Under the pieces are notes generated by a model. That model did no database searches. It saw only the letters and a program-made list of their open reading frames with translations, and was not told the origin of the DNA. Below, piece after piece: positions 617 through 21,403 of a stretch of 23,859 nt of DNA. Source of the DNA: Pigoraptor vietnamica. Its lineage: Eukaryota > Opisthokonta > Filasterea. Made by a program: the position numbers and the translations under genes. The stretch is taken from contig CALSCQ010002021.1 in NCBI GenBank assembly GCA_943704525.1, positions 1 through 23,859 of the forward strand. The letters run 5' to 3'. Numbering within the stretch: the first letter of the stretch is position 1; every line of letters begins with the position of its first letter.

Positions 617-3239
617 TCAGTTGAGGTACACGACCTCCCGGTCTTCCACATCACGGCGACACTTTGGGCACTTTGGGAGCGCATGGACGCACGCCGAGCA
701 GAAGGCGTGCTTGCACGGGCGCAGCAGCATGTCGAGGGGTCGGTCGTAGCAGACCGAGCACGTGACCCCGGTGCCAGCCGAGTCCTCGTCGCTCTGCGTG
801 ATAAGGGGCGGCGATTGGGTCACACAACGGTCAAACTGGTGAAGGCGCCTCGATAATGTCACGTGAGCTCGCGATGCGCACAAGCAGCGTCCCTCGCGGG
901 CTTACCGAGGATGCAGAGAGAGCGCGGCTCAAGGAACGCCTGTGCGCTTTGACGAGCCGGACGAGTTCGTCCAACTTGTCCGCCGGGAGAGAGGCTGTAA
1001 CGGGCACCCATCACACACACACAAAAAAAAAGGTACGGCGTGAGTCACAGACGAAGACGGGATCGTTGCCTGAACACATGAACGAAGCAGAAGCAGAGCA
1101 CGGCCGCGGGTGGGGTGACTGGAAGAGAGAGGAGGGAGAGCCATTTGGCAAACTCACGCACCAATGTCAGACGCCTGTAGGAGGTCGCGTGTCACACGGA
1201 GCAACGCGATGATGCGCTCGTGGTCGCGCGCTTCGTTCGCTGGTGCTTGGTCGGTCGACGGCTGAAGAGGCCGACGGGAACGCCAACAGATGGAGGCGTG
1301 CATGTCAGAGTGTGGCGCGCAGAGACGTCCGCGCGTGCGATGTGTATGAGTGCGAAGACAAGAGGAGGTTGGCTCCGTTGAAGGCCTTTCACTGTGTCCG
1401 TGTCGGGGGCGAACGCGCGTTACAATGTTATAACGGACGATGCGCACCTTGGCAAGGGCCGCTGCCAGTTCACCGGCGAGAATTTCATTGCGGGCCCTAA
1501 GGGCGCTCAACTCCTCCTCGTGCCTGCACTTGGGATATGAGCACGCACACACGCGAACGGACAGGGTACACTGGGCACAAGCATGCCGGCACCTCAGCGT
1601 ACGGCTGAAAGCACATTCACCGAGAGACTTACAAGCGGTACGACAGAGAGCACGCATACGGACCGCTCAAAAGCACACCCCAAGAGCCCGCAGGCCGAGG
1701 GACGTCCGCAAACGAGAATGCGCCGGCAACAGGCAACGTGTGGCTGACGGGCCGAGCACCCTCGCGCCCTTTACATGTACTCATCGAATGATCACAAGAA
1801 TAAACACGCATGCGGCACATACACACGCGCGAGAAGCCTTTTAGAAGCCCACGTGCGAGTCACGGTGTCTGCCCCTAGCGTCGCACGCACTCTGGCCCAC
1901 AGAGACACGTGACATATACACGCCGACCAACACTGACGAGCGCATACGGAATATGGACTGAGTCAAACAACAACGCATATGGGGCATTGCGCCAAAAGGC
2001 ACTCGCCGACAGCAACCCCACACCCACATTTTCAAGATGTGTCGTGCGCACTTTGCGTCCTCCTGGGCCCGTTCCAGCTCTCCGGTCAAGTCGGCGGTTT
2101 CGCCCTTCCAGCACGCTAGCAGAAACTTGCACTTGAGAGCGTTCCTCTTCTTCCCGGCCCTCTTCCCAATGGCGTACTCCCTAAGCAACGCGGTTGCCTG
2201 CAACGCCCGGGAAAAAAAAAAAGAAGTGATGAGCACAAGCGATGCGCTCAAACACGCACGCAACTTTTGTGCCGACGGAGCACACGGCAAGCAACACGCA
2301 CCGGGGACGCGATCGTCACGAGGACGAGCGCCGACGCCTTGAACCACCCAGCGTATGCCGCATTTCGGACCAAGAAGGGCCTGTCGCAGCCGCCGTCCCT
2401 AACCACCAGCCCAGTCTCACCCGGCGCGAGGATGCCCTCGGGGCCCTCGACGTTCGGACAAAAGGTGGGCGCTAGTTGCACGAGCCGCCCGACGGTGATC
2501 TTACCGCAGAATGAATCCTTCACGCCGGCGCCGCAGCACGACCAGTGCGGGTACATTCTCTTTTCGACACTGTCGCCGCCGTGCACACACACGGCGCCCT
2601 CCACATTAGATGCGGACGAGCACCATTGCTTGCACTCGACTCCGCGCCACTCGCCCGAATGGGGGACGCTGACGGCGCGGCATGGCGCGTCCTCCATTGT
2701 CTCACCACAGCAAGACCAATGCGCCCGCGCGCAAACGCCATCGCCGTGCCCGCAGAAAGGGCCATCCTCCGCGCCCTGGAGAGAGCAACCGCCGCGCGCA
2801 CGCCAGATGCCGCTGTGGAGTGGCGGGACGAGCACGAGGTCGTGCTCACCGTCCTGGCCAATGCGGTAAAAATTTGCGTGGTCGGTGGCCAACCAGCGCA
2901 CGTGAGCCGACCTGCGCCGTCCGTGACTGTAAGTTGACTGAGGAAGGAAAGGGCACAAATGCGCACACGCACGCACCCATAGCGCTCTGCACACGCGCGC
3001 ACACCCACCCACAAACACTCTGCATGCACACATAAAACACACACACGGTCACACGCGCATACACACACAAACACTCTGCATGCACACACAAACACACACG
3101 CACGCTCACACGCACACACATACACACACACCACACACATACACACACACACACACATACACACACACCACACACACACACACACACCACACACACACAC
3201 ACACACACGCTCACACACATACACACACACACATACACA

Positions 3240-3286
<47 letters not shown>

Positions 3287-3307
3287 CACACGCGCACACA
3301 CACGCTC

Positions 3308-3346
<39 letters not shown>

Positions 3347-3439
3347 CACACGCACACACACACACACACACACTCTCTCTCTCTCTCTCACACACGCACA
3401 CACACACACACACACACACACTCTCTCTCTCTCTCTCTC

Positions 3440-3515
<76 letters not shown>

Positions 3516-3653
3516 TGGCATCGCTCACCCCTTCTCGCTAAGGCCAAGAATCTTCCCCGGACCCCCGCCGTCCTGGTTGCCCCACTTCCAGTTCGGCCCC
3601 CTGCGCACGGTCAGTCCCACGCGGAAATTGTCGGCGGTGACGATGCCTTCCAT
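617..3653 (-). CDS. MIB/HERC2-domain RING E3 ubiquitin ligase
   Basis: Predicted ubiquitin ligase of 453 residues. Exons in order: 3653-3529, 2926-2302, 2197-2028, 1523-1448, 1261-1162, 994-906, 793-617; all junctions keep phase. Residues about 8-75 form a MIB/HERC2-like domain ([15 protein letters not shown], later [13 protein letters not shown]) split by intron 1. Two Cys/His-rich units follow (about 79-124 and 131-182), each with HSGxW, a CxHG-type step and HWSCCG. An SH3-like segment lies near 188-245, then a charged helical, probably coiled-coil region (about 255-395). The C-terminal C3HC4 RING uses C407, C410, C422, H424, C427, C430, C437 and C440 and ends 13 residues before the stop. 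Known mind-bomb ligases ubiquitinate membrane ligands, but this protein lacks ankyrin repeats, so its substrate cannot be inferred. The start is the ATG just before the MIB fold; a TATA-like box lies about 75 nt upstream. Confidence 0.85.
2994..3516. repeat. Composite (CA)n/(CT)n microsatellite in ligase intron 1
   Basis: About 520 nt of CA dinucleotides interrupted by CG, AT and CCA steps, with two (CT) blocks near 3373-3390 and 3420-3440. A 20-nt unit starting caaacactctgcatg occurs twice, near 3012 and 3068. The tract fills most of the first intron of the ligase (3528-2927), so it reads as (TG)n in the transcript. Confidence 0.95.
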
Positions 3654-3989: not shown

Positions 3990-5635
3990 ATGTCTTCCAG
4001 CGATGACCGTGGGTCGCTGTTGTGCCTTTCGCATAACCCTTGTTCTTTCTTTGTAATAGCCGGCGTGTGTGTGCAATGTGTGGGTGTGTATGAACATCTC
4101 ATCCCCCCTTCCCCCCTTCCCCCCTCCTATTCTTTGTGCCCAAATAGCCTTTTCTCTGGACGAAGGCGACAGTGATTACGGCGGTGGGAAGGCGACGAAG
4201 AACGCCAAGTCCCCGAAAAAGGCAACTCCCGCCGCGCGAAAAACACCCCCGGCGACAAAAAAGGCGTCCGCAGGTCGCAAACGAAAACAGAAAAGTTCGG
4301 ACAGCGACGACAGTGACGCCGAGTTTGGGGATGGCGGTGACTCGCCGCCGGTACAGCGTCGGGCGTCTGCGCGGCCAACAAAACGCGTGCGTGTGATATC
4401 GGACGACGACGAGGGAGAGGGAGAGGACGATGCGTCTGTGGTGGAGGTAAAAGCGCCGCCCAAAGCGAAACGGGCACCGACTCGCCCTGCCGCACGAAAG
4501 CGAAAACTAAGCAGCTCGGAGGAGGAGGAGAAGGAGGAGGAGGTCGCAGAGAGTGAGTCGAGTGCGTCGGAACCGGAGGACAGCGGCAGTGACTATTTGG
4601 ACGCGGACAGCGACGACGATTTTGGCGGTGCGAAGACGAAGCGCAAGTCGCCGAAGAAGGCGCCGGCGTCGGCAAAGAAGGGCGCCGTGCGCGCGACGCC
4701 GACTGCTGCGAAGGCAAAGGCAGCGTCGGCGTCGCCGCGGAAGAGCGCGGCGAAGGAGAGCGAGCCCGCGAAGGGGTCGGACTCTGTTACAGCTCGTGGT
4801 GGAGCGGTTTCTGCTAGAGAACTATTCGGTCTGGACTCTGACAGCGAGGACGAAGCCGTGCCCATGTCGGGTGAGCTCGCGTCCCCGTCGGAACCGCCCG
4901 CGAGCCAGAGTCAGACGACGGCGAGCCAGGCCCTTGCGAGCCAGGAAGGAAAGAAGAAGACCAAGGGACCGGTGGGTGTGGGATGGGGCCGCACTGCACG
5001 CACGCACGTAAGCACTCCTCGTATGTCCGTCCTCTCACGCGTGCTTCCCGCATTGCTCGCGGTCAAGCTTGTGGGCGTACGCGCATGTGCCAAGCCCGCT
5101 CACGTGACGCTTCTCTGCAGGCCACCCTCGCGTCCACAATCCCCATCGTCGTCCCGCACGCGCGTCGCAACACGACGTTTGCGATGGAGACGAATGAGCC
5201 CGAGGTGTGTTGGCTTGCGTGTCTGTCTGTTGCACTCCAAGAGTTTCCCGGCACGTGCCTAACTGCCCGCTTCGTCACACACGCACACACGCAGCTCGAC
5301 CTCAGCGGCGACACTGGCGCTGTGGGCCGTTTCAGCCTTGCGGACGATGCAGAGAGCCCAATCGTACTCGACTTGAAAGGTGCGTTGGTGTGTACGTTGG
5401 TCCCTCTCTCGCGTGCGCACACGCTTGACCGCGTCCAGCGGAGTCGTTGGACGGACGTCTGTGATTCGAACTGATCCGATATCTCTGACGATGAGACATT
5501 GATGGATGTTCGCGTAGCGTGTGGAAAGTGTGACCAGCATTCAACCGTTGAACACTTCTCTGCGATGATTGATGGTGCACGTGTGTGTTTTACTCTCCTG
5601 TGCGCCACGTCGCGCGCCCGCACGCACGCACACAC

Positions 5636-5671
<36 letters not shown>

Positions 5672-6487
5672 ATTTTGACGCTCTCGATTCGTCCGCAGGC
5701 TTTCTCTTCAGGGGGAACTTGCGGCCGTGCGCTTCGCTCCTTGTCGTTAACATTGGTCCACAGGCGGCGAAAGTAGAGGTGCGACCTTGTGCCATCCATA
5801 GCAATTGGCATGGGCTTCCGAACACTTCATTTCTTTGTGTGTCACTTTTCGTTGCTTTGTGCGCTTGAAAATTACAACTCATCCTCTCTGTCTCTTATTC
5901 GCTCGACATTTAGGCGGTGGTGGATCGCTATGTGCACTGCACGCACGCGAGCAACGTGCTGGACACGGAGACACTCGTCGAGGGGCAACTGGAGGAGGTG
6001 GGTCGGTGAAACGGGGTCACGCACGCACGCACGCACGCATACACACACACACACACATACACACACACGCGCGCGCGCGCTTGAGCCCGCTTGTGTTGTT
6101 CATGCCAGTGGTGAGGTGCGAACTGAGCCTCTCCGCTCGTTGCAGGATCTCGACGAAGTGTCGGCGGCTGTGACCGATGTATGGCGCATGGACGACGACG
6201 AGGGCGGCGCATCGTCGGCGCCCACAAAGGGACGGGGAAAGAAGGGTGCCGGCGCGTTCCTGAGCTCGGAAGACGTCGTAAGGAAGCATTCCGACGGCGC
6301 TGCGAAGCCCAAAAAGGCCAAGGCCAAGGCGAAGAGTGCGCGAGGGAGTGCGAAGGGCGCGGGGAAGGGTGCGAAGGCGACCAAAGCAAAAACAGGGGCG
6401 CAAAAGGCGTCAAGAAAGAGTGTGGGCGATGCGCCGAAGCGGGCGAAGAAGACTGCGGCCAAGCGGCCCAGGGTGGACTCGGACTGA
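3990..6487 (+). CDS. BIN4: BIN4 homologue, DNA topoisomerase VI accessory subunit
   Basis: Predicted nuclear protein of about 505 residues. Exons: 3990-4008, 4148-4971 (or to 5007), 5121-5204, 5295-5379, 5699-5778, 5914-5997, 6146-6487. Both candidate donors of exon 2 keep phase; the longer adds 12 residues. The core (about 285-410) carries the hallmarks I recall from plant BIN4/MIDGET: IDLSGDMGAVGR-like (here LDLSGDTGAVGRF), LDLKG, a VVNxGxxxAKxEAVVD stretch and TLVEGQLEE. In Arabidopsis BIN4 binds DNA and works with topoisomerase VI in endoreduplication; that role here is inferred. The N-terminal half alternates acidic Ser/Asp blocks with Lys/Ala/Pro blocks and holds an SQ cluster (residues 259-272). 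The C-terminus is very Lys/Ala rich and histone-H1-like. Introns 4 and 6 contain CA repeats. The tiny first exon (MSSSDD) is supported by phase and by the start beginning an acidic N-terminus. Confidence 0.85.
5618..5670. repeat. (CA)n microsatellite in BIN4 intron 4
   Basis: About 50 nt of near-perfect CA repeat, preceded by CGCACGCA variants, lies about 25 nt before the acceptor region of exon 5. Confidence 0.9.
6019..6082. repeat. (ACGC)n, (CA)n and (CG)n tract in BIN4 intron 6
   Basis: ACGC tetramers run into CA repeats and then alternating CGCGCG, inside the last BIN4 intron. All of it is alternating purine-pyrimidine sequence. Confidence 0.85.
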
Positions 6488-6634: not shown

Positions 6635-8057
6635 CTATATTTCGTGCGACTCCTCCGTGTCGCTAATGTGCTTGACGCGCACGTAGCAGTCGACGCCGTA
6701 CCCGCTCAGGTTCTGCACCTGCAGCGACCCACCGAGAAACTGCGCGTACGCCCTCGTCATGGGCATTCCAAACCCCGTCGACGGCATCCGTCCAGAGTCC
6801 TCCGCGCTCACAAGCTGCCTCGCAATCGGCGGCACAGGCGAGTACCCATGCGCACCCCCCGACGCTGCAGCCGCGTGGTGCGACAGGCGCGAGGGTGACG
6901 GCACGTAACTCCACAAATAGTCGAGCGTCTCTGCGTCCATGGAACCTCCTTGGTCCGATACGCGGATCGTGATCTCGGTGCCGCCCTTACACACCGTGAC
7001 GACGATCGGCGGCGGAGCCGACGCGAGCGCGTGTTTTTCCATGACGGCGCGCATGCTGTTCTTGAGCACTTCGATGGCCATGTACTCAATGTGGCTCGGT
7101 ATGTAGGAAAAGGTCGCGCCAATGTGGCCCTCTATCTTCACCTCGGGGTGTGCGCCGTACGCACGGTCGCAGAGCTGCTGGACCTGCTGCGCGGCGCCCC
7201 ACACGACGCGCGCGGGGCTGCAGTGCTCGTCGACGATGCCGATGCGGCCAATGTGCGAAGCGCAGCCCGAGTGAAAGGCGTTGTGGAGGGCGAGGTGGTG
7301 TTCTGCAGCAGCAGATAGAAAAGGGAAGGAGGGGGGGGGTTGGGTTGAGTGGGAGGGACGCAAGTAGTTAGAGAAACGGGGTAGATACGCCATAAGAGAG
7401 CGCGACTAATACCGCACAGCACACAACCACGCAACGCGGTGCGCACACACGCATGAAGCCCGCACCTGCGAGCACGCGTCGGCTGATGCGCGTTCGGATC
7501 ATCTTCTCCAGAAAGTCGTTGAGCTCTCTTCGCGGCACGTGCTCGGCAATGTCGCGCACCGCCAGCGCAAGCGTCGGTATGACGTCCTTGTGCATCGCGA
7601 GGCAGTGGCGGAGGACATCGACGAACCCGCGCTCGTCCGCCAGCGTCCGGATCTCCGGAAAGTTCTTGAAAGCCTCAAACGCGTCCACGTAGCACTTGTA
7701 GACGACCTGAATGTGCGGGTTGCACCCGGCTATGAAGGGCAGCTGGTTCATGTCGCGAATACGCCGCGCCAATCGCACGCTCAGCTCGTGTCGCAAGCGT
7801 CGCGCGCTCTCCGTTAGCTTGTGCTCGTCGAGGCGAAGGCCCAGCTGCATCATCGACCGTATGGTCGTCCGGAAGGGCCGCTGACACGCGTACTCCTCCA
7901 CCGCGCCCTCGATCGAATAGGGTGTCGTCTTTGGGGATACATCGTGGGTGAGGCGCGTCGTCAAGTGCCTCGAGAGAACACGATGGTGCAACACGCGCAG
8001 GCACGACTGCGTCACGGCGACGGGCGATCGGCGCGCGTGAGCGACCAATGAAGCCAT
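6635..8057 (-). CDS. BCKDK: Mitochondrial branched-chain ketoacid dehydrogenase kinase-like
   Basis: Predicted mitochondrial matrix Ser kinase of the PDK/BCKDK (GHKL) family, 419 residues, from exons 8057-7466 and 7302-6635 joined in phase. It would phosphorylate and switch off the E1-alpha subunit of the branched-chain (or pyruvate) dehydrogenase complex. Residues 1 to about 40 are Arg/Ser rich with almost no acids, a typical import signal. The N-terminal four-helix domain contains LPFIAGCNP and HKDVIPTL. The ATP-binding domain shows the N-box (HIEYMAIEVLKNSMRA, 268-283), a G1 box (SDQGGSM, 313-319) and GFGMPMTRAYAQFLGGSLQVQ (374-394). The ATP lid (about 332-372) is Ala/Pro/His rich. FIxGCNP and the LGGSL...VKHI ending resemble BCKDK more than PDK as I recall them, but a PDK assignment is possible. 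The gene is convergent with BIN4, 147 nt apart. Confidence 0.85.
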
Positions 8058-8204
8058 CAGCGCATGCGCGCGCCGTCACGGCACGCACGCGGGAGGCACC
8101 TGCGTGGTCGGCGACGAAAGCAAGCCCCAACACACACAATCGCACGACGCACGCAGATTTTTTGGGAGAATGCTCCAACGACTTGATGAGACGAACCCAC
8201 GCGG

Positions 8205-12005: not shown

Positions 12006-12630
12006 TTTGACAGCGGGAAATCACAGTTAAAGGAGTACGATTGTCAATCGTTTTTCTGTGAAACTGCAAAACCTTCAACGTGGGCGTGTTACCGTTTGTC
12101 ACTTTTGAGCACCCCGGATGCGCAGTACGAGGACTAGAGTTATAGATTGTCCTGCTTTGTTCTCGATTGCTCAAAATAATTGAAATATAAATCACATTTG
12201 TATGAAATTTGTATTGAAACCAGGGTGTGAAATGGCCAGTGGTGGAGTCCGTCCAATTAGGAAATTTTCAGAGATTTGGTTTTGTGTGGCGCCTACTCAG
12301 TGCACCGCAGGGTGGGTGTTTCCCAATGCATTGGCCCTTGGTTGGGGTTACAAGTCACTGCAACATACAGTGAGGGTCTCCAATTTGAATGCAAGGTGGA
12401 TGTTACGCCACTGCAGGCAGAGGTGGATGTTTACATTTGGTGTAGGGTGGGAGTTATGTGTGTCTGGGTGGCCACACCCCTCACGATGTGTGCTCAAGGG
12501 CTCCTCGGCGCATCTCGCACACAACGTTCAAAGCAAAAGGCACTTTGACTTGGCATTTTCTTCAGCATCTTTGCTCCTTTATCCTCTTTTGCGCAACGCG
12601 GGCGTAGCATTGCGCTCGATCGTAAGGAGG
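12006..12630. other. Divergent spacer, PIG-L and secreted gene 1
   Basis: About 625 nt without a recognisable exon. From about 12308 to 12457 it holds four GGTGG-A/G-x-GTT-like motifs, including the exact AGGTGGATGTTAC at 12394-12406 and a one-base-longer variant at 12421-12434. Confidence 0.5.
12394..12406 (+). promoter_or_regulatory. AGGTGGATGTTAC element, copy upstream of secreted gene 1
   Basis: An exact 13-mer also found at 8362-8374 and 14619-14631, always in gene-free 5' flanking DNA. Degenerate relatives lie at about 12308, 12421 and 12445. Function unknown; it could be a transcription-factor site or a remnant of a dispersed repeat. Confidence 0.4.
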
Positions 12631-13160
12631 ATGGCCCGCGCCCTTGCTGTCTTCGCCCTCGTGGGCTGTGTGCTTGTCGGCTTTGCTCTTGGCGAGCGTG
12701 AGTGTCCTCGTTTTTGTGAGCCTGCATCCTATTCACGATGTAATGCCCCGTAGTGCCCCGTAGAAATGACGTTGTGTTGTCTGAGGCGAGGTTGATGCAT
12801 GCGTCGGTCGTCAGATATGCATATCAGTATGCGTTATTGCTCGCTATTGTTCAGACGCATAACACCTTCTCGCGTTGCGACACACAGGCGTCTCGAAGAC
12901 GTTTGATCCGGCCAACTTCGGCTTCACGAAGGGCGACGATAACGCGGTCTTTACGACGTACGTGGACCGGGATGCCTCTGGCAAGCCGACGGTCGTTGGG
13001 TTCTCGTGGCCCGACTTTGTGTCTGGCCGCCTCGGGCTCCCCCCGCACCCTGCCGTTGCGATGCTCGAGATGCCCGAGGTCCGCGACGTGCCCTACAAGA
13101 CGTTCGAGTTTGACTGGAACAACGGTGGGTTGATCTGAATATGCCTCGTGCGTGCGTGCA

Positions 13161-13206
<46 letters not shown>

Positions 13207-14422
13207 TGTGGGCGCTCGTGGCAAGCAGGGCGTATTGTCGGTCACTTTCTAACCGACTCTTCACCCCTGGCTACGTTAGGGGGCCACCCTGGCGGTCTCT
13301 CGCTTGAGGACCGCGTCATCTACGACTCGCTCACACCGGGTGAGGAGCAGGCGCTCTTCCTCGTTCAGCACGGCGCGTGGATGGTCCCCCACTTTGACAT
13401 GCACGCGTACCACGTGGACATGTCGTACATTAGCGGCATCCAGCCGTGCTCGTCGTTCCCGCCGTGCGTTTTCGACCCCGCCATGATGGGCAAGACGATG
13501 AACTATCCCGCGGCGCGCTTTTTCCCGCCCAACTTCAAGCCGAGCCTCTACGCGGCGGTCCCCATGATGGGCATCCACTGGTGCGTTTTTCTCTTTTTTT
13601 TTTCCTGTTTTGTTTCGTATCTCACTCTTCCCCTCTCAACGCACCTCAAAACCGCGCGCGCTCGTTGTACGTTGACCTTATTCTCGGACAAGACCCTGCC
13701 TCACTCGCAATCCTGTTTGCGCTTGCAGGGACGACGTCACGGCGGACGTGACGCCAGAGTCGTATGCCACGACCCCCGCGATCATCTACGGTTCGTGGGA
13801 CGGCCGCATGATTTTCACCGAGGCGATGCCCGCCAAGAGCAACCTCGAGGCCATTCGCTCGTCGGCGTCCAAGATGCAGGTCGGCTCGCTCATGCGCCCC
13901 TCGCACTTCCAGCGCAGCGGCTACTACGCCAGCAACTACCGCATCTACTACAGCGCCGAGACGAACAACTTTTATTACGAGCTCTTCGACTTTGACTACT
14001 TTGAGGGTGAGTGGATGGCACGTGAGCCGCTCTGTCGGCGTCGGCTGTCTTCCTTCGCACCGTGTCGCGCATGTCGCTTGTTGGGATGGCACGTGAGCCG
14101 CTCTGTCGGCGTCGGCTGTCTTCCTTCGCACCGTGTCGCGCATGTCGCTTGTTGGGCCGTGGTCGCTGACGCCCTGCCTGGTTGCCGCACACAGTGGATG
14201 ATGAGTATGCCGATGACGAGTGGTACGAGAAGTTCAACAAGTGGCAGGTCCAGTTTAAGGTGCGTTGTTGTCGCATTGCGCCCTGTATCTGTGCCGGCAC
14301 CCTCCCGCTTCTTACATGTTAATCTGTGCCTGATGTTGAGTTTCTGACGCTGTTCGTTTCACTTGCAGGCGTGGAAGGCGAACGCTGGCTCGTGCAACAC
14401 GCCGCCGCCCGGCATGCCGTAA
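12631..14422 (+). CDS. Secreted TTHB210-like (DUF5602-type) protein, paralogue 1
   Basis: Predicted secreted protein of 333 residues. Exons: 12631-12697, 12888-13124, 13280-13580, 13729-14006, 14195-14259, 14369-14422, all in phase. Residues 1 to about 21 are a clear signal peptide (MARALAVFALVGCVLVGFALG). The body resembles the bacterial TTHB210-like domain as I recall it: a strand-rich half with VFTTYVDRDASGKPTVVGFSWPDF, then DWNNGGHPGG, MVPHFDMHAYHV (H139, D141, H143, H146, a possible metal site), VPMMGIHW and AIIYGSWDGRMIFTEAMP. A Cys pair near PCSSFPPC and a C-terminal GSC may form disulfides. An acidic, Trp-rich tail follows. Biochemical role unknown. The next gene is a tandem paralogue with the same exon plan. 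Confidence 0.85.
13157..13208. repeat. (GT)n/(GTGC)n tract in intron 2 of secreted gene 1
   Basis: About 50 nt of GT dinucleotides passing into GTGC tetramers, within the intron 13125-13279. Confidence 0.9.
14013..14154. repeat. 71-nt perfect tandem duplication in intron 4 of secreted gene 1
   Basis: Copy 1 is 14013-14083 and copy 2 is 14084-14154. The copies start ggatggcacgtgagccgc and appear identical by eye. They make up most of the intron 14007-14194. Exact identity points to a recent event, or to an assembly artefact. Confidence 0.93.
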
Positions 14423-14975: not shown

Positions 14976-16841
14976 ATGGCGCGAGGCATCGCGCTGCTCC
15001 TCGTGAGCCTTGCCCTTCTCAGCGCTGTTGCGGGCGAATGTAAGTCTGTGTCAGATTGAGTTGTCGCCAGGCTTGTGTTGCGCCCACTCTTGCATTTTTG
15101 CGAGTAAATGTTGTCTCCTGTCGTTGCTCACCAAAGTGCGTGGCGTGACTGCGTTCATATCTCAAAATCTGAGCGGCGGGCGTGTCTTTTCAGTATTGTT
15201 GTTGCTACTGTACTGTCCAGAATTGCCAAATGACCCTCACGCCATGTCCGCCGCTGTGTCTGCAGACCATGTCAGCGTGTTCAACCCTGCCGACTACGGG
15301 TTCGAAGTGGGCGACTCGCACGCCGTGTTCACATTGTACCTCGACACCAATGCGACGGGCGAGCCCAACGTGGCGGGCTTCCGGTTCCCCGACTTTACGA
15401 CCGGGCGCCTCGTCCTTCCGTCGCACCCCATGACCACGTCGTTTGACGTTCCGTCGTCCGTCGAGCTTCCATACAAGATATTCTCGTTCGATTGGAACCC
15501 AAGTGAGTGCATGTCCATTGTTGGCTGTTGTGATCATGAGTGCCTCAGTCTGTCAATCTCCATTCATTTCGATTGTCGTGCAAGCAATGTGTGGCCGGCT
15601 GAACCCCGGCTGTCTTTCATATATGCCGCATTGGTCAGACAGTGCCCGTAACGGTTGCCGGCTGTGGCGATGCTTAACATGTGGCTCCGCTCCCCCGGTT
15701 GATTTTTGCGATCCCGTCTGCTCACTGGTTTTTGAAATTCCGACCTTGAGTTCGTTTGACTTCGCTTGAACTGACCGATGCATTCATTCCCCCGCAACAC
15801 TCAGACGGGCACCCGGGCGGCCTCTCCCTTGCGGACCGCGCCACGTACAACAAGCTGCCAGATAGCCAGAAGGCGGCGTTCCTTGCACAGCACGGCGCCT
15901 GGATGGTCCCCCACTTTGACTTTCACCTCTACCACGTCGGCATTGATTTCCTCGACGACATCCAGTGCGAGGCGTTCCCCCCGTGCTCCCTCAGCGCGAA
16001 CCAGAAGGCGGCGGCGACCAATTACCCGCCGGCGCGCTTCCTTCCGAGGCACTACGTCCCGGACATTAACACTGTCGTGCCGATGATGGGTCTCCACTGG
16101 TGGGTCCCTAATCTATTGAGTGTGGACGTGTCGTGAACTATGCCGTGAGCCGAACAGCAACAGTTTCCTGTGTAGATCTGTCCGTACGCCTCCGTCGGCA
16201 AGGGAACTGGAGTCTCGTCCCCACAGGCTGAAGACGTCGTCATGTGTGCCGGCCGTTGTGCTAATCGCAACTCCTCCCTTTCATTGTCAGGGACGACGCG
16301 TCAGAGGACGTCACTCCCGCGCACTATGCCGCCAACCCTGCCGTCATTTACGGCTCGTGGAACGGGCGCATGATCTTCACGGAGACAATGCCCGCCAAGA
16401 GCACCTTTGAGACGATTCGCGCGACGGGCGCGACGTACACCGGCTCGCTCAAGCGCCCGCTGGCGTTCCAGCGCACGGGACACTACGCAGGGCAGTTCCG
16501 GATTCACTACGATTCCGTCGCCGAAGAGTTCGTCATCGAGATATTCGACTTTGAGCGCATCGAAGGTGCTTAGTGTTTCTATGCCAACCCTCACTGCTGT
16601 TGTTGGTAGCACGCAGGGAATTGAAGCCGTCGTGCCTGACATTCCGATTCGCGCGCGTTGCAGTGGATGCTGCGTACGCCCCCGACGAGTGGAGGGAGGC
16701 CTACGGAGAGTTCACGAGCTCTTTCGAGGTGCGTGCGCGTTCGTTGGCTCAGTTAATCCAGACACAGCGTTCATTCCGACTCACCCGAAATGCGCACGCA
16801 TTTGATCGCAGACGTGGAAGAGGAACAGCTGTAACAACTGA
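14976..16841 (+). CDS. Secreted TTHB210-like (DUF5602-type) protein, paralogue 2
   Basis: Predicted secreted protein of 321 residues. Exons: 14976-15039, 15266-15502, 15805-16099, 16291-16565, 16664-16728, 16812-16841, in phase. The signal peptide is residues 1 to about 20 (MARGIALLLVSLALLSAVAG). It shares with its upstream neighbour GHPGGLSLxDR, QHGAWMVPHFDxHxYHV (H137, D139, H141, H144), FPPC, VPMMGxHW, YGSWxGRMIFTExMPAKS and FQRxGxYA. All five intron positions and phases are the same in both genes; exons 2 (237 nt) and 5 (65 nt) are equal in length. The C-terminus is shorter and ends NSCNN after a conserved TWK/AWK step. The pair clearly arose by tandem duplication. I infer an extracellular or lumenal, perhaps metal-binding role, unproven. 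Confidence 0.85.
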
Positions 16842-18499: not shown

Positions 18500-18542
18500 T
18501 ACACCGTAAGAAATGTGAATACAATTCATGCCTCGTCGCGAT

Positions 18543-18578
<36 letters not shown>

Positions 18579-18591
18579 GCACACAACACAC

Positions 18592-18628
<37 letters not shown>

Positions 18629-18641
18629 GCACACAACACAC

Positions 18642-18728
<87 letters not shown>

Positions 18729-18729
18729 G
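18543..18729. repeat. Long (CA)n microsatellite
   Basis: About 185 nt of CA dinucleotides with two cgcgcacacaacacacaac interruptions about 50 nt apart, so the array itself contains a duplicated block. If the His-rich exon is real, this is its intron, read as (GT)n. Confidence 0.95.
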
Positions 18730-18765
18730 ATCGTAAACCGAAACCCACAGCGCTTCCCGCGCAAC

Positions 18766-18863: not shown

Positions 18864-19417
<554 letters not shown>

Positions 19418-20075
19418 ATGGTTGTCCTTCACGTGAAGCGGGGCGACGAGAGCCTCTTTCTGTTTCAGACGACGTGCGATGTCCCTCTCGACAAGCTCAT
19501 CCCTGAAGTAACCGCCATATACAACGGGCGGTTGCGCGTAGAGCGCCTTTGCGAGGGTGCGTGGGCCACACATTGCGACAGTGCGCGCTCAAGCGTTCCC
19601 CTCTCTGTGTGGTGATGTGTCTGCTCTTCAATGGCCCATGAATGTGGCACAATGAGCAGTGGGGGCCCATAGGAAGTGTTGGTCGCTGCATCTTACCTTG
19701 GACATCCCCCGTGTGTGCAGCTGCGCGCGACCTCGCAAAGCACGGCGTGTGTCTCCCACCGAACATGCAGGGCCTGACGCCGGAGCAGATCGAGGAGATG
19801 CACTATGTCGACGACTGGGGGCAGAAGTGCCGTCCCATGGGCGGCGTCGTCGTCAACCCGGACCCAATGGGACGGCGGAACGGCGAAGGTGCGCGGGCAG
19901 CGTGCATGCGTAGTGTTAAACACTGAATTGCTTAGGTTGTCGTTTTGTTACGTAGCGATGATCCAGCACTATGCGGACGTTATTGAGAAGGCCTGCGCGG
20001 AAGCACTCGCGGTCATCAGCAAGGTTTGTGGTTGCGCGTATGAGTGACGTGTATTTATAGTGTGGGGAGTGCGCA

Positions 20076-20107
<32 letters not shown>

Positions 20108-21403
20108 GTGCGTCTATGTAGCTCGTGTGAGAGTGCGTACGTGCGTTCACGTGCGCAGGTGCGTGTGTGTGCATGCGCCCTCACAGACACACACACTCGT
20201 GCGCTTTGCAGAATCAGGCGGCTGCGAATGTGTGTGTGACGGACAAGATGATTGCGGATGCCATTGCGACCATCGGCGGCGCAGTCACAATGGCCTATCC
20301 CATGGGCCTGCCTCCTCACGAGCACGTGAAGGCCATCCTCGAAGACGACGAGGACCTCTCGGGCACGCAGGTGCGTCACACACACGTCACTCGTGCGTGC
20401 TTCTTTCACACGTCACTCGTGCGTGCTTCTTTGCCGCTGTCTCTGCGGGGACTGAACTGCGCTGTTTGTCGGAGTGCGCATGGTGTGCTTGTGTGGGATG
20501 CTTACTTCGCGTTACTCATATTTGGCACGTTCACAAGCATTAAGTTCGCACTTGTCTGTTGCATTCCCTTAGCATCCCTTTCCCCTCAACGTCCCAACAA
20601 CCCCACACTCCCTGTGTTTGCAACGTGTGACCATGGGTCGATGATTTACACGTCCCCCATCTCGCTGGCGCAGGCATCGCAGGCGGTGATTGATCCCGCG
20701 CAGGCGCAGCTGTGGTGGGCGGGGAAGGAGCTCCTCCGCGACAAGAAGCTTGGTGACTTTGTGGGCCGAAATGAGAAGACAAAGCTCATAGTCAAGATCC
20801 AGAAGGTGCGTGCAGTCCCCGCGAGCGCATGTGCGTGCGTGTGCAGATGCCAATAAGTGTGGACTCTGTGTGTGCGTGCGTGCGCGGGGCTGCTTGGTGC
20901 TCTGCTCTCTTGTGTCGTGTTTGTGTTCGTGTTGGTGTGTGTTTTGTGCTCGTGCGTTGTTCTGACCGCTCGTGTCACGTGGCCGCAGCGGGGAGCGGGC
21001 GCCCCAGTGCGCGAGCCTGCGGTTGACGAGGCGACGCAGCGACAGCTCATGGCCATGTACCACAAGAAACAGGAGGAGCTCAAGGTGGGGCGGCGCTTAT
21101 GCAGCGCACACATAAGCAACCCTCACCGACTCACAGACTCACCGCCTCACACCGACCCACACCGACCCACACGGATCCGCACACTGAACTTGCTCTGCAC
21201 GTCCACTCATTACTATCACGCTTCACACCGCGCACTCGCACTCGCCATTCACGTGCACTCACATGCGAACTTACCTCGCGCATTTCGCACAGAGGATTGA
21301 GGCTGACGACTCGGATGCCTACCATGGGGCGGCGTGGGCGGACACAAGCGCCCTCAAGCAGTCGCTGCGCGGTCTGGACAACGTCGGCTGGCGGCCGCGG
21401 TGA
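19418..21403 (+). CDS. CFAP298: Cilia- and flagella-associated protein CFAP298
   Basis: Predicted 290 residues, the length I recall for human CFAP298 (C21orf59/Kurly). Exons: 19418-19556, 19721-19888, 19956-20023, 20212-20370, 20674-20805, 20989-21084, 21293-21403, all in phase. The family is needed for assembly of axonemal dynein arms and for cilia motility and polarity. Strong matches as recalled: MVVLHVKRGDESLFLFQ, YNGRLRVERLCE, HGVCLPPNMQGLTPEQIEEM, DDWGQKCRPMGG, GRRNGEA, YPMGLPPHE, DLSGTQ, AQLWWAGKELLRDKKLGDFVGRNEKTKLIVKIQK, GAPVREP, MAMYHKKQEELK and a C-terminus with WADTSALKQSLRGLDNVGWRPR. This indicates motile flagella or cilia at some life stage. A (GT)n tract and a 26-nt tandem duplication lie in introns 3 and 4. 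Confidence 0.95.
20077..20110. repeat. (GT)n tract in CFAP298 intron 3
   Basis: About 30 nt of GT repeat within the intron 20024-20211, followed by a looser GT-rich stretch. Confidence 0.88.
20381..20432. repeat. 26-nt tandem duplication in CFAP298 intron 4
   Basis: Copies 20381-20406 and 20407-20432 are identical by eye (cacacgtcactcgtgcgtgc then ttcttt). They begin 11 nt into the intron. Confidence 0.9.

What the first reader, a model, noticed from the sequence alone, without database searches (positions are those of the whole stretch)
5121..6238. BIN4 (topoisomerase VI accessory) homologue in a flagellated eukaryote
The exons spell LDLSGDTGAVGRF, LDLKG, VVNIGPQAAKVEAVVD and TLVEGQLEE in the order I recall from plant BIN4/MIDGET. 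BIN4 is best known from plants, where it acts with topoisomerase VI. Its co-occurrence with CFAP298 means that a lineage with motile cilia keeps it, implying a TOP6A/TOP6B pair elsewhere in the genome.
Basis: partly seen in the sequence, partly recalled or inferred. Interest (0 to 1): 0.75.

Follow-up and report, generated by a model that had tools for sequence, protein, structure and literature searches.

The report
BIN4 topoisomerase VI helper gene
This is a normal, intact protist gene for BIN4, a DNA-binding helper of the enzyme topoisomerase VI, which is best known from plants but already reported from many single-celled eukaryotes, flagellated ones included, so it is sound but not surprising.

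Summary
The four quoted peptides are present in order. The core matches Arabidopsis BIN4 at 38% identity over 104 aa; the Arabidopsis letters are recalled, as no BIN4 model or structure appeared in Pfam, PHROGs or PDB. Not resting on recall: the same 32.5-Mb genome holds a 13-exon TOP6A that matches solved Top6A chains far better than Spo11. A recalled RHL1 query finds one exon at a contig end. TOP6B was not found in six searches, but TBP, one of four control proteins, was not found either, so its absence is undecided. The CFAP298 neighbour is real. The surprise is not justified: BIN4 and RHL1 are reported in all eukaryotes with eukaryotic topo VI, including many protists, and topo VI in choanoflagellates (PMC11302465, passages and sections). 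A new member of a known kind.

The parts
3990..4008 (+). BIN4 exon 1 (start codon, MSSSDD)
   Evidence: GT-AG boundary, phase fits exon 2; the start codon choice is inferred
4148..4971 (+). BIN4 exon 2: long acidic/serine-rich and basic low-complexity N-terminal region
   Evidence: open frame, GT-AG; 34% D+E+S in the first 280 residues
5121..5204 (+). BIN4 exon 3: start of conserved core (IPIVVPHARRNTTFAMETNEPE)
5295..5379 (+). BIN4 exon 4: LDLSGDTGAVGRFSLADD...IVLDLK
   Evidence: the open stretch with exons 3 and 4 scores best of 692 in the window against recalled BIN4
5699..5778 (+). BIN4 exon 5: GFLFRGNLRPCASLLVVNIGPQAAKVE
   Evidence: rank 4 of 692
5914..5997 (+). BIN4 exon 6: AVVDRYVHCTHASNVLDTETLVEGQLEE
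   Evidence: rank 2 of 692
6146..6487 (+). BIN4 exon 7: end of core and Lys/Arg-rich tail, stop codon at 6485-6487
   Evidence: 31% K+R in the last 90 residues

Best explanation
The gene is an intact orthologue of BIN4 (MIDGET) in a protist that also carries a cilium gene. Shown: the complete open gene structure, the BIN4-like core between a low-complexity N-terminus and a basic tail, and a TOP6A gene and an RHL1 exon in the same genome. Inferred: the protein binds duplex DNA and, with RHL1, forms the eukaryote-specific accessory part of a TOP6A/TOP6B heterotetramer that passes one duplex through another to decatenate DNA. The TOP6B subunit is inferred and was not seen in the assembly. Whether the complex serves endoreduplication, as in plants, is unknown here.
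For: Seven exons join in frame with GT-AG introns. 38% identity over 104 aa and 80 bits to the recalled Arabidopsis BIN4 core; score 197 versus a maximum of 51 in 2000 shuffles. TOP6A is complete (13 exons, 418 aa), found by Pfam models exon by exon: spliced, TOP6A-Spo11_Toprim 3.1e-67 and TP6A_N 6.3e-23; the PDB chain 2zbk topoisomerase VI subunit A matches at E 1.3e-51 over residues 72-418, against SPO11 (8urq) at 4.9e-16 over 130-321 only. A recalled RHL1 query matches one exon at 38% identity, E 3.4e-10. No BIN4 relative was confirmed in the prokaryote genome collection or in viral contigs, which is consistent with a eukaryote-only family. PMC11302465 says that RHL1 and BIN4 are in all topo VI eukaryotes and not in other organisms (passages).
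Against: The BIN4, RHL1 and plant SPO11-3 reference letters are recalled, not retrieved; a search of papers for four recalled BIN4 peptides found none. No Pfam or PDB match supports the core. TOP6B was not found. No AT-hook core of the RGRP type was found in the protein; I recall that one is described for plant BIN4 but could not confirm it (one search found no paper) and do not take it as defining. There is no expression or biochemical evidence.
Confidence: 0.88

Rival explanations
1. The protein is primarily a kinetochore component (CENP-U-like); the topoisomerase role is secondary or absent.
For: Plant BIN4 is listed as a CENP-U homologue (PMC11794483, passages), and Arabidopsis BIN4 co-precipitated with KNL1 (PMC12595034, passages).
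Against: The Pfam scan of the whole protein at E up to 10 returned no CENP-U family (HMMER's filters can drop weak matches), and the PDB search of the core returned no CENP-U chain. TOP6A and an RHL1 exon are present in the same genome. PMC11794483 says that BIN4 mutations have no known implications for kinetochore assembly or cell division.
Confidence: 0.05
2. TOP6A, RHL1 and BIN4 persist without a canonical TOP6B, the B subunit being lost or diverged beyond recognition.
For: Six searches for TOP6B failed. The two family models used rang over their cut-off in 4 of 14 control genomes, all archaea. TOP6A was found with a plant query in five separate exon matches (E 1.3e-26 to 0.0146). The recalled TOP6B query matches solved topoisomerase VI subunit B chains at 1.2e-93.
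Against: The assembly is in 1395 contigs, the RHL1 gene is cut off by a contig end, and TBP was missed among four control proteins. The exons of BIN4 itself were also missed when the recalled plant core was part of a query. The tool warns that the empty answer shows nothing without a genome known to match. PMC11302465 reports the subunits and accessory proteins together (section 13).
Confidence: 0.06
3. The likeness to BIN4 is a chance resemblance in an unrelated nuclear protein with acidic and basic repeats.
For: Much of the protein is low-complexity, and an unrelated frame of the window reaches a score of 53.
Against: The aligned 104-aa core is not low-complexity by eye, and its score of 197 is far above all 2000 shuffles. 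The genome independently holds TOP6A.
Confidence: 0.01

Closest known systems
BIN4/MIDGET (Arabidopsis AT5G24630), accessory protein of plant topoisomerase VI
   Same: Conserved core in the same order (38% identity over 104 aa to recalled letters), and a genome that also encodes TOP6A and an RHL1 exon.
   Different: From a protist with a cilium gene; about 280 residues of low complexity before the core; no RGRP-type AT-hook core; TOP6B not found in the assembly.
CENP-U (CCAN inner kinetochore)
   Same: Named in two 2025 papers as a relative of plant BIN4.
   Different: No CENP-U match for this protein in the Pfam scan or for its core in the PDB sequence search.

Membership tests
BIN4 | Conserved core (P-V-P, DLSGDxGAVGR, LDLKG, VVN-G-AK-EA, SNV-ET-VEG-LE) | tested here: met
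   40 identical columns in the pairwise alignment with a recalled Arabidopsis core; 38% over 104 aa. The reference is recalled, so retest with authentic sequences.
BIN4 | Restricted to eukaryotes | tested here: inconclusive
   No relative confirmed by tblastn in the prokaryote genome collection (80 pattern stretches, possibly a capped list, from two short peptide patterns) or in viral contigs (11 and 28 stretches). A diverged relative could be missed. PMC11302465 states the restriction (passages).
BIN4 | Co-occurs with TOP6A (SPO11-3) | tested here: met
   C999:31982-29221 (- strand), 13 exons; 2zbk topoisomerase VI subunit A E 1.3e-51 versus SPO11 4.9e-16.
BIN4 | Co-occurs with RHL1 | tested here: met
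   One exon at C1082:9881-10087, 38% identity, E 3.4e-10 with a recalled Arabidopsis query; the match runs slightly into the following intron, and the gene is cut off by the contig end.
BIN4 | Co-occurs with TOP6B | tested here: inconclusive
   No TOP6B in six searches; fragmented assembly; TBP missed among four control proteins.
BIN4 | DNA binding and physical association with the topo VI complex | not testable with these tools
   Needs biochemistry.
TOP6A rather than SPO11 (C999 gene) | Full-length match to topoisomerase VI subunit A, better than to meiotic SPO11 | tested here: met
   Best subunit A chain matched over residues 72-418; SPO11 over 130-321 only and 117 bits lower. 68% identity over 369 aa to recalled Arabidopsis SPO11-3. 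No phylogenetic tree was built.
CENP-U | CENP-U family match | tested here: not met
   No such family among Pfam matches at E up to 10.

The most novel reading that the evidence does not exclude
The lineage keeps TOP6A, RHL1 and BIN4 but has lost the canonical TOP6B, so that a DNA-cleaving A subunit with its eukaryotic accessory proteins works without, or with a very different, ATPase subunit.
Probability: 0.06. Interest if true: 0.65.

Novelty: new member of a known kind. Interest (0 to 1): 0.2.

Why it matters
It adds one more protist genome in which BIN4, RHL1 and TOP6A go together, in line with the published rule that the accessory proteins track eukaryotic topo VI. If the species is a relative of animals, which weak evidence allows (RAD51 and uL2 rankings), it would be a further case of the retention of topo VI in unicellular holozoans that PMC11302465 calls unusual (passage). 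What topo VI does outside plants stays open.

Tried and rejected
Considered and rejected. (1) The TIGR01052 (top6b) hit at C1323 (E 2.5e-4, 23.4 bits, far below the cut-off): the translated locus reads as the N-terminal ATPase and following part of an ordinary eukaryotic topoisomerase II, by my recognition of the sequence; no family scan was run on it. (2) The HATPase_c frame beside BIN4 (window 6635-7405, -) belongs, with BCDHK_Adom3 at 7368-8075, to a mitochondrial-type dehydrogenase kinase, not to TOP6B. (3) CENP-U as the better name: no match. (4) BIN4 or TOP6A relatives in viral contigs, or BIN4 relatives in prokaryote contigs: none confirmed.

Led nowhere. Naming the organism: the SSU rRNA search of the genome got no answer four times. 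Best PDB matches for RAD51 and uL2 only hint at an animal-like or related lineage (the outputs do not name organisms, and chain-to-organism identities are my recall). Structure prediction was not attempted, because a spliced protein is not read letter for letter from contiguous window DNA. The 2022 paper on topo VI evolution (PMC9665070) and the original BIN4 paper (PMC2174874) are not held. Paper searches were seen as listings with starts of abstracts; from these I opened passages of PMC7971027 and PMC9198077, which mention topo VI only in reference lists. A search for BIN4 with AT-hook and topoisomerase found no paper.

Full report
What was checked. The finding names exons at 5121-6238 that spell BIN4-like peptides. 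The sequence shows them on the + strand, split by introns. Splicing at GT-AG sites gives a complete gene: exons 3990-4008, 4148-4971, 5121-5204, 5295-5379, 5699-5778, 5914-5997 and 6146-6487, introns of 139, 149, 90, 319, 135 and 148 bases, and an open CDS of 1518 bases for 505 residues. GC at third codon positions is 0.715 against 0.562 over the introns, as expected for real exons in this GC-rich window. The four quoted peptides fall at residues 310, 334, 353 and 384. The splice sites were chosen by eye; no transcript was available.

What it is. Pfam gave no meaningful family for the whole protein (best a CobS_N match at E 0.11, below its cut-off) and none for the core; PHROGs gave none for the core; the only PDB match of the core was insignificant (E 1.7). 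No library on hand therefore tests BIN4 membership. Forty columns are identical. Of the 692 open stretches of at least 15 residues in the window, those with exons 3-4, 6 and 5 rank 1, 2 and 4; rank 3 is an unrelated frame. The weakness is that the reference letters are recalled; four recalled peptides were not found in the paper library.

The genome. The window lies in G000:C821, an assembly of 32.5 Mb in 1395 contigs. TP6A_N has one match and TOP6A-Spo11_Toprim three, all four in one gene on C999. Spliced, it has 13 exons with GT-AG introns and encodes 418 residues, with Pfam TOP6A-Spo11_Toprim at 3.1e-67 and TP6A_N at 6.3e-23. Against PDB it matches topoisomerase VI subunit A chains (archaeal, by recall): 2zbk over residues 72-418 at 1.3e-51, then 2.9e-40 and 2.2e-32. 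SPO11 (8urq, yeast by recall) matches only over 130-321 at 4.9e-16. NCBIfam, a library for prokaryotes, returns six A-subunit models, named topoisomerase IV or VI subunit A, the best at 4.1e-80, all below their curated cut-offs. Against recalled Arabidopsis SPO11-3 it is 68% identical over 369 residues. It is TOP6A rather than a meiotic SPO11, though no tree was built. No separate SPO11 was listed in these two family searches, which match exon by exon and can miss short exons.

A recalled Arabidopsis RHL1 sequence hits C1082:9881-10087 at 38% identity, E 3.4e-10. The match appears to run a little into the next intron, and the contig ends at 10129 in a TC repeat, so only part of RHL1 is present there. 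Pfam gave no family for this exon.

TOP6B was not found with the Pfam transducer model, NCBIfam top6b, whose only hit I read as topoisomerase II, a recalled Arabidopsis TOP6B, which matches solved subunit B chains at 1.2e-93, and three degenerate patterns for conserved motifs. The two family models rang over the cut-off in 4 of 14 control genomes, all archaea. Three facts limit this negative. BIN4's own exons were also missed by a query holding the recalled plant core. The tool warns that the empty answer shows nothing without a genome known to match. In a control query of four near-universal proteins, RAD51, PCNA and RPL8 were found but TBP was not. Absence of TOP6B is therefore undecided.

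Neighbourhood. Of ten stretches scanned in that call, others gave a RING protein, a mitochondrial dehydrogenase kinase (two frames), a PIG-L deacetylase, an RNA cap guanine-N2 methyltransferase, a rhodanese domain and a weak RNase_T match below its cut-off; two gave nothing. These fit an ordinary eukaryotic chromosome.

How it most likely works. According to PMC11302465 (passages), plant topo VI requires RHL1 and BIN4, both of which bind DNA in vitro. This protein has the same core with a Lys/Arg-rich tail (31% K+R in the last 90 residues), and the genome has TOP6A and an RHL1 exon. The best reading is a DNA-binding accessory subunit of topo VI that helps duplex passage and decatenation. The DNA binding, the complex and the TOP6B partner are inferred.

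What is known. PMC11302465 (2024; I read passages, section 13 and part 1 of the discussion) states that RHL1 and BIN4 are found in all topo VI eukaryotes, except one dinoflagellate with bacterial-type topo VI. It confirms topo VI in at least 16 SAR orders; the figure is not held, but the legend names 20 orders, four of them apicomplexan and without topo VI, so that the 16 include, by my count, Bicosoecida, Pelagomonadales, Chlorarachniales and Prorocentrales. It also reports retention of topo VI in Choanoflagellatea, Filasterea and Ichthyosporea; BIN4 there follows from its general statement and was not seen by me species by species. That bicosoecids and choanoflagellates swim with flagella is general knowledge. 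BIN4 together with motile cilia is therefore not new. Two 2025 papers link plant BIN4 distantly to CENP-U and to KNL1 pull-downs (PMC11794483 and PMC12595034, passages); this protein shows no CENP-U match.

Lineage. The organism could not be named. Its RAD51 matches recalled human RAD51 at 84, 87 and 85% identity in three stretches, and PDB chains named RAD51 homolog 1 rank above those named RAD51. For uL2 the top row is a chain (11he) scored over two stretches; below it one chain (9eho) and a group that I take to be animal ribosomes rank above chains that I take to be plant and fungal (organisms recalled). This is weak and only compatible with an animal relative such as a choanoflagellate.

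Verdict. A real, intact BIN4 gene; new member of a known kind; interest low. The one open point of interest is the unseen TOP6B.

Noticed in passing
G000:C1082:9881-10087 (L008, L013): Probable RHL1 exon at the very end of a contig that stops in a TC dinucleotide repeat; the rest of the gene must lie on another contig or be unassembled.
   Followed up: partly
G000:C999:29221-31982 (L006), - strand: Complete 13-exon TOP6A gene; the toprim VDSDPYG motif and the E of LLVEKDA are present, so it looks catalytically intact by sequence (motif roles recalled).
   Followed up: yes
window about 12620-14010 and 14980-16580 (+): Tandem pair of similar multi-exon genes whose first exons begin with hydrophobic, signal-peptide-like stretches (by eye); no Pfam family at E up to 1 for rough splices of either.
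   Followed up: partly
window, about 2990-3540, 18520-18740 and 19120-19260: Long CA-rich simple repeats, reading as HTHTHT/VCVCVC frames; not coding evidence.
   Followed up: no
G000:C420:28800-31000 (L019): A second gene similar to RAD51 (49-76% identity in the listed stretches), probably DMC1 by recall, beside the RAD51 gene on C1179; it suggests that meiotic recombination genes are kept.
   Followed up: no
window 19409-21403 (+), approximate: CFAP298 gene confirmed by Pfam (E 2.1e-37) on a rough splice.
   Followed up: yes
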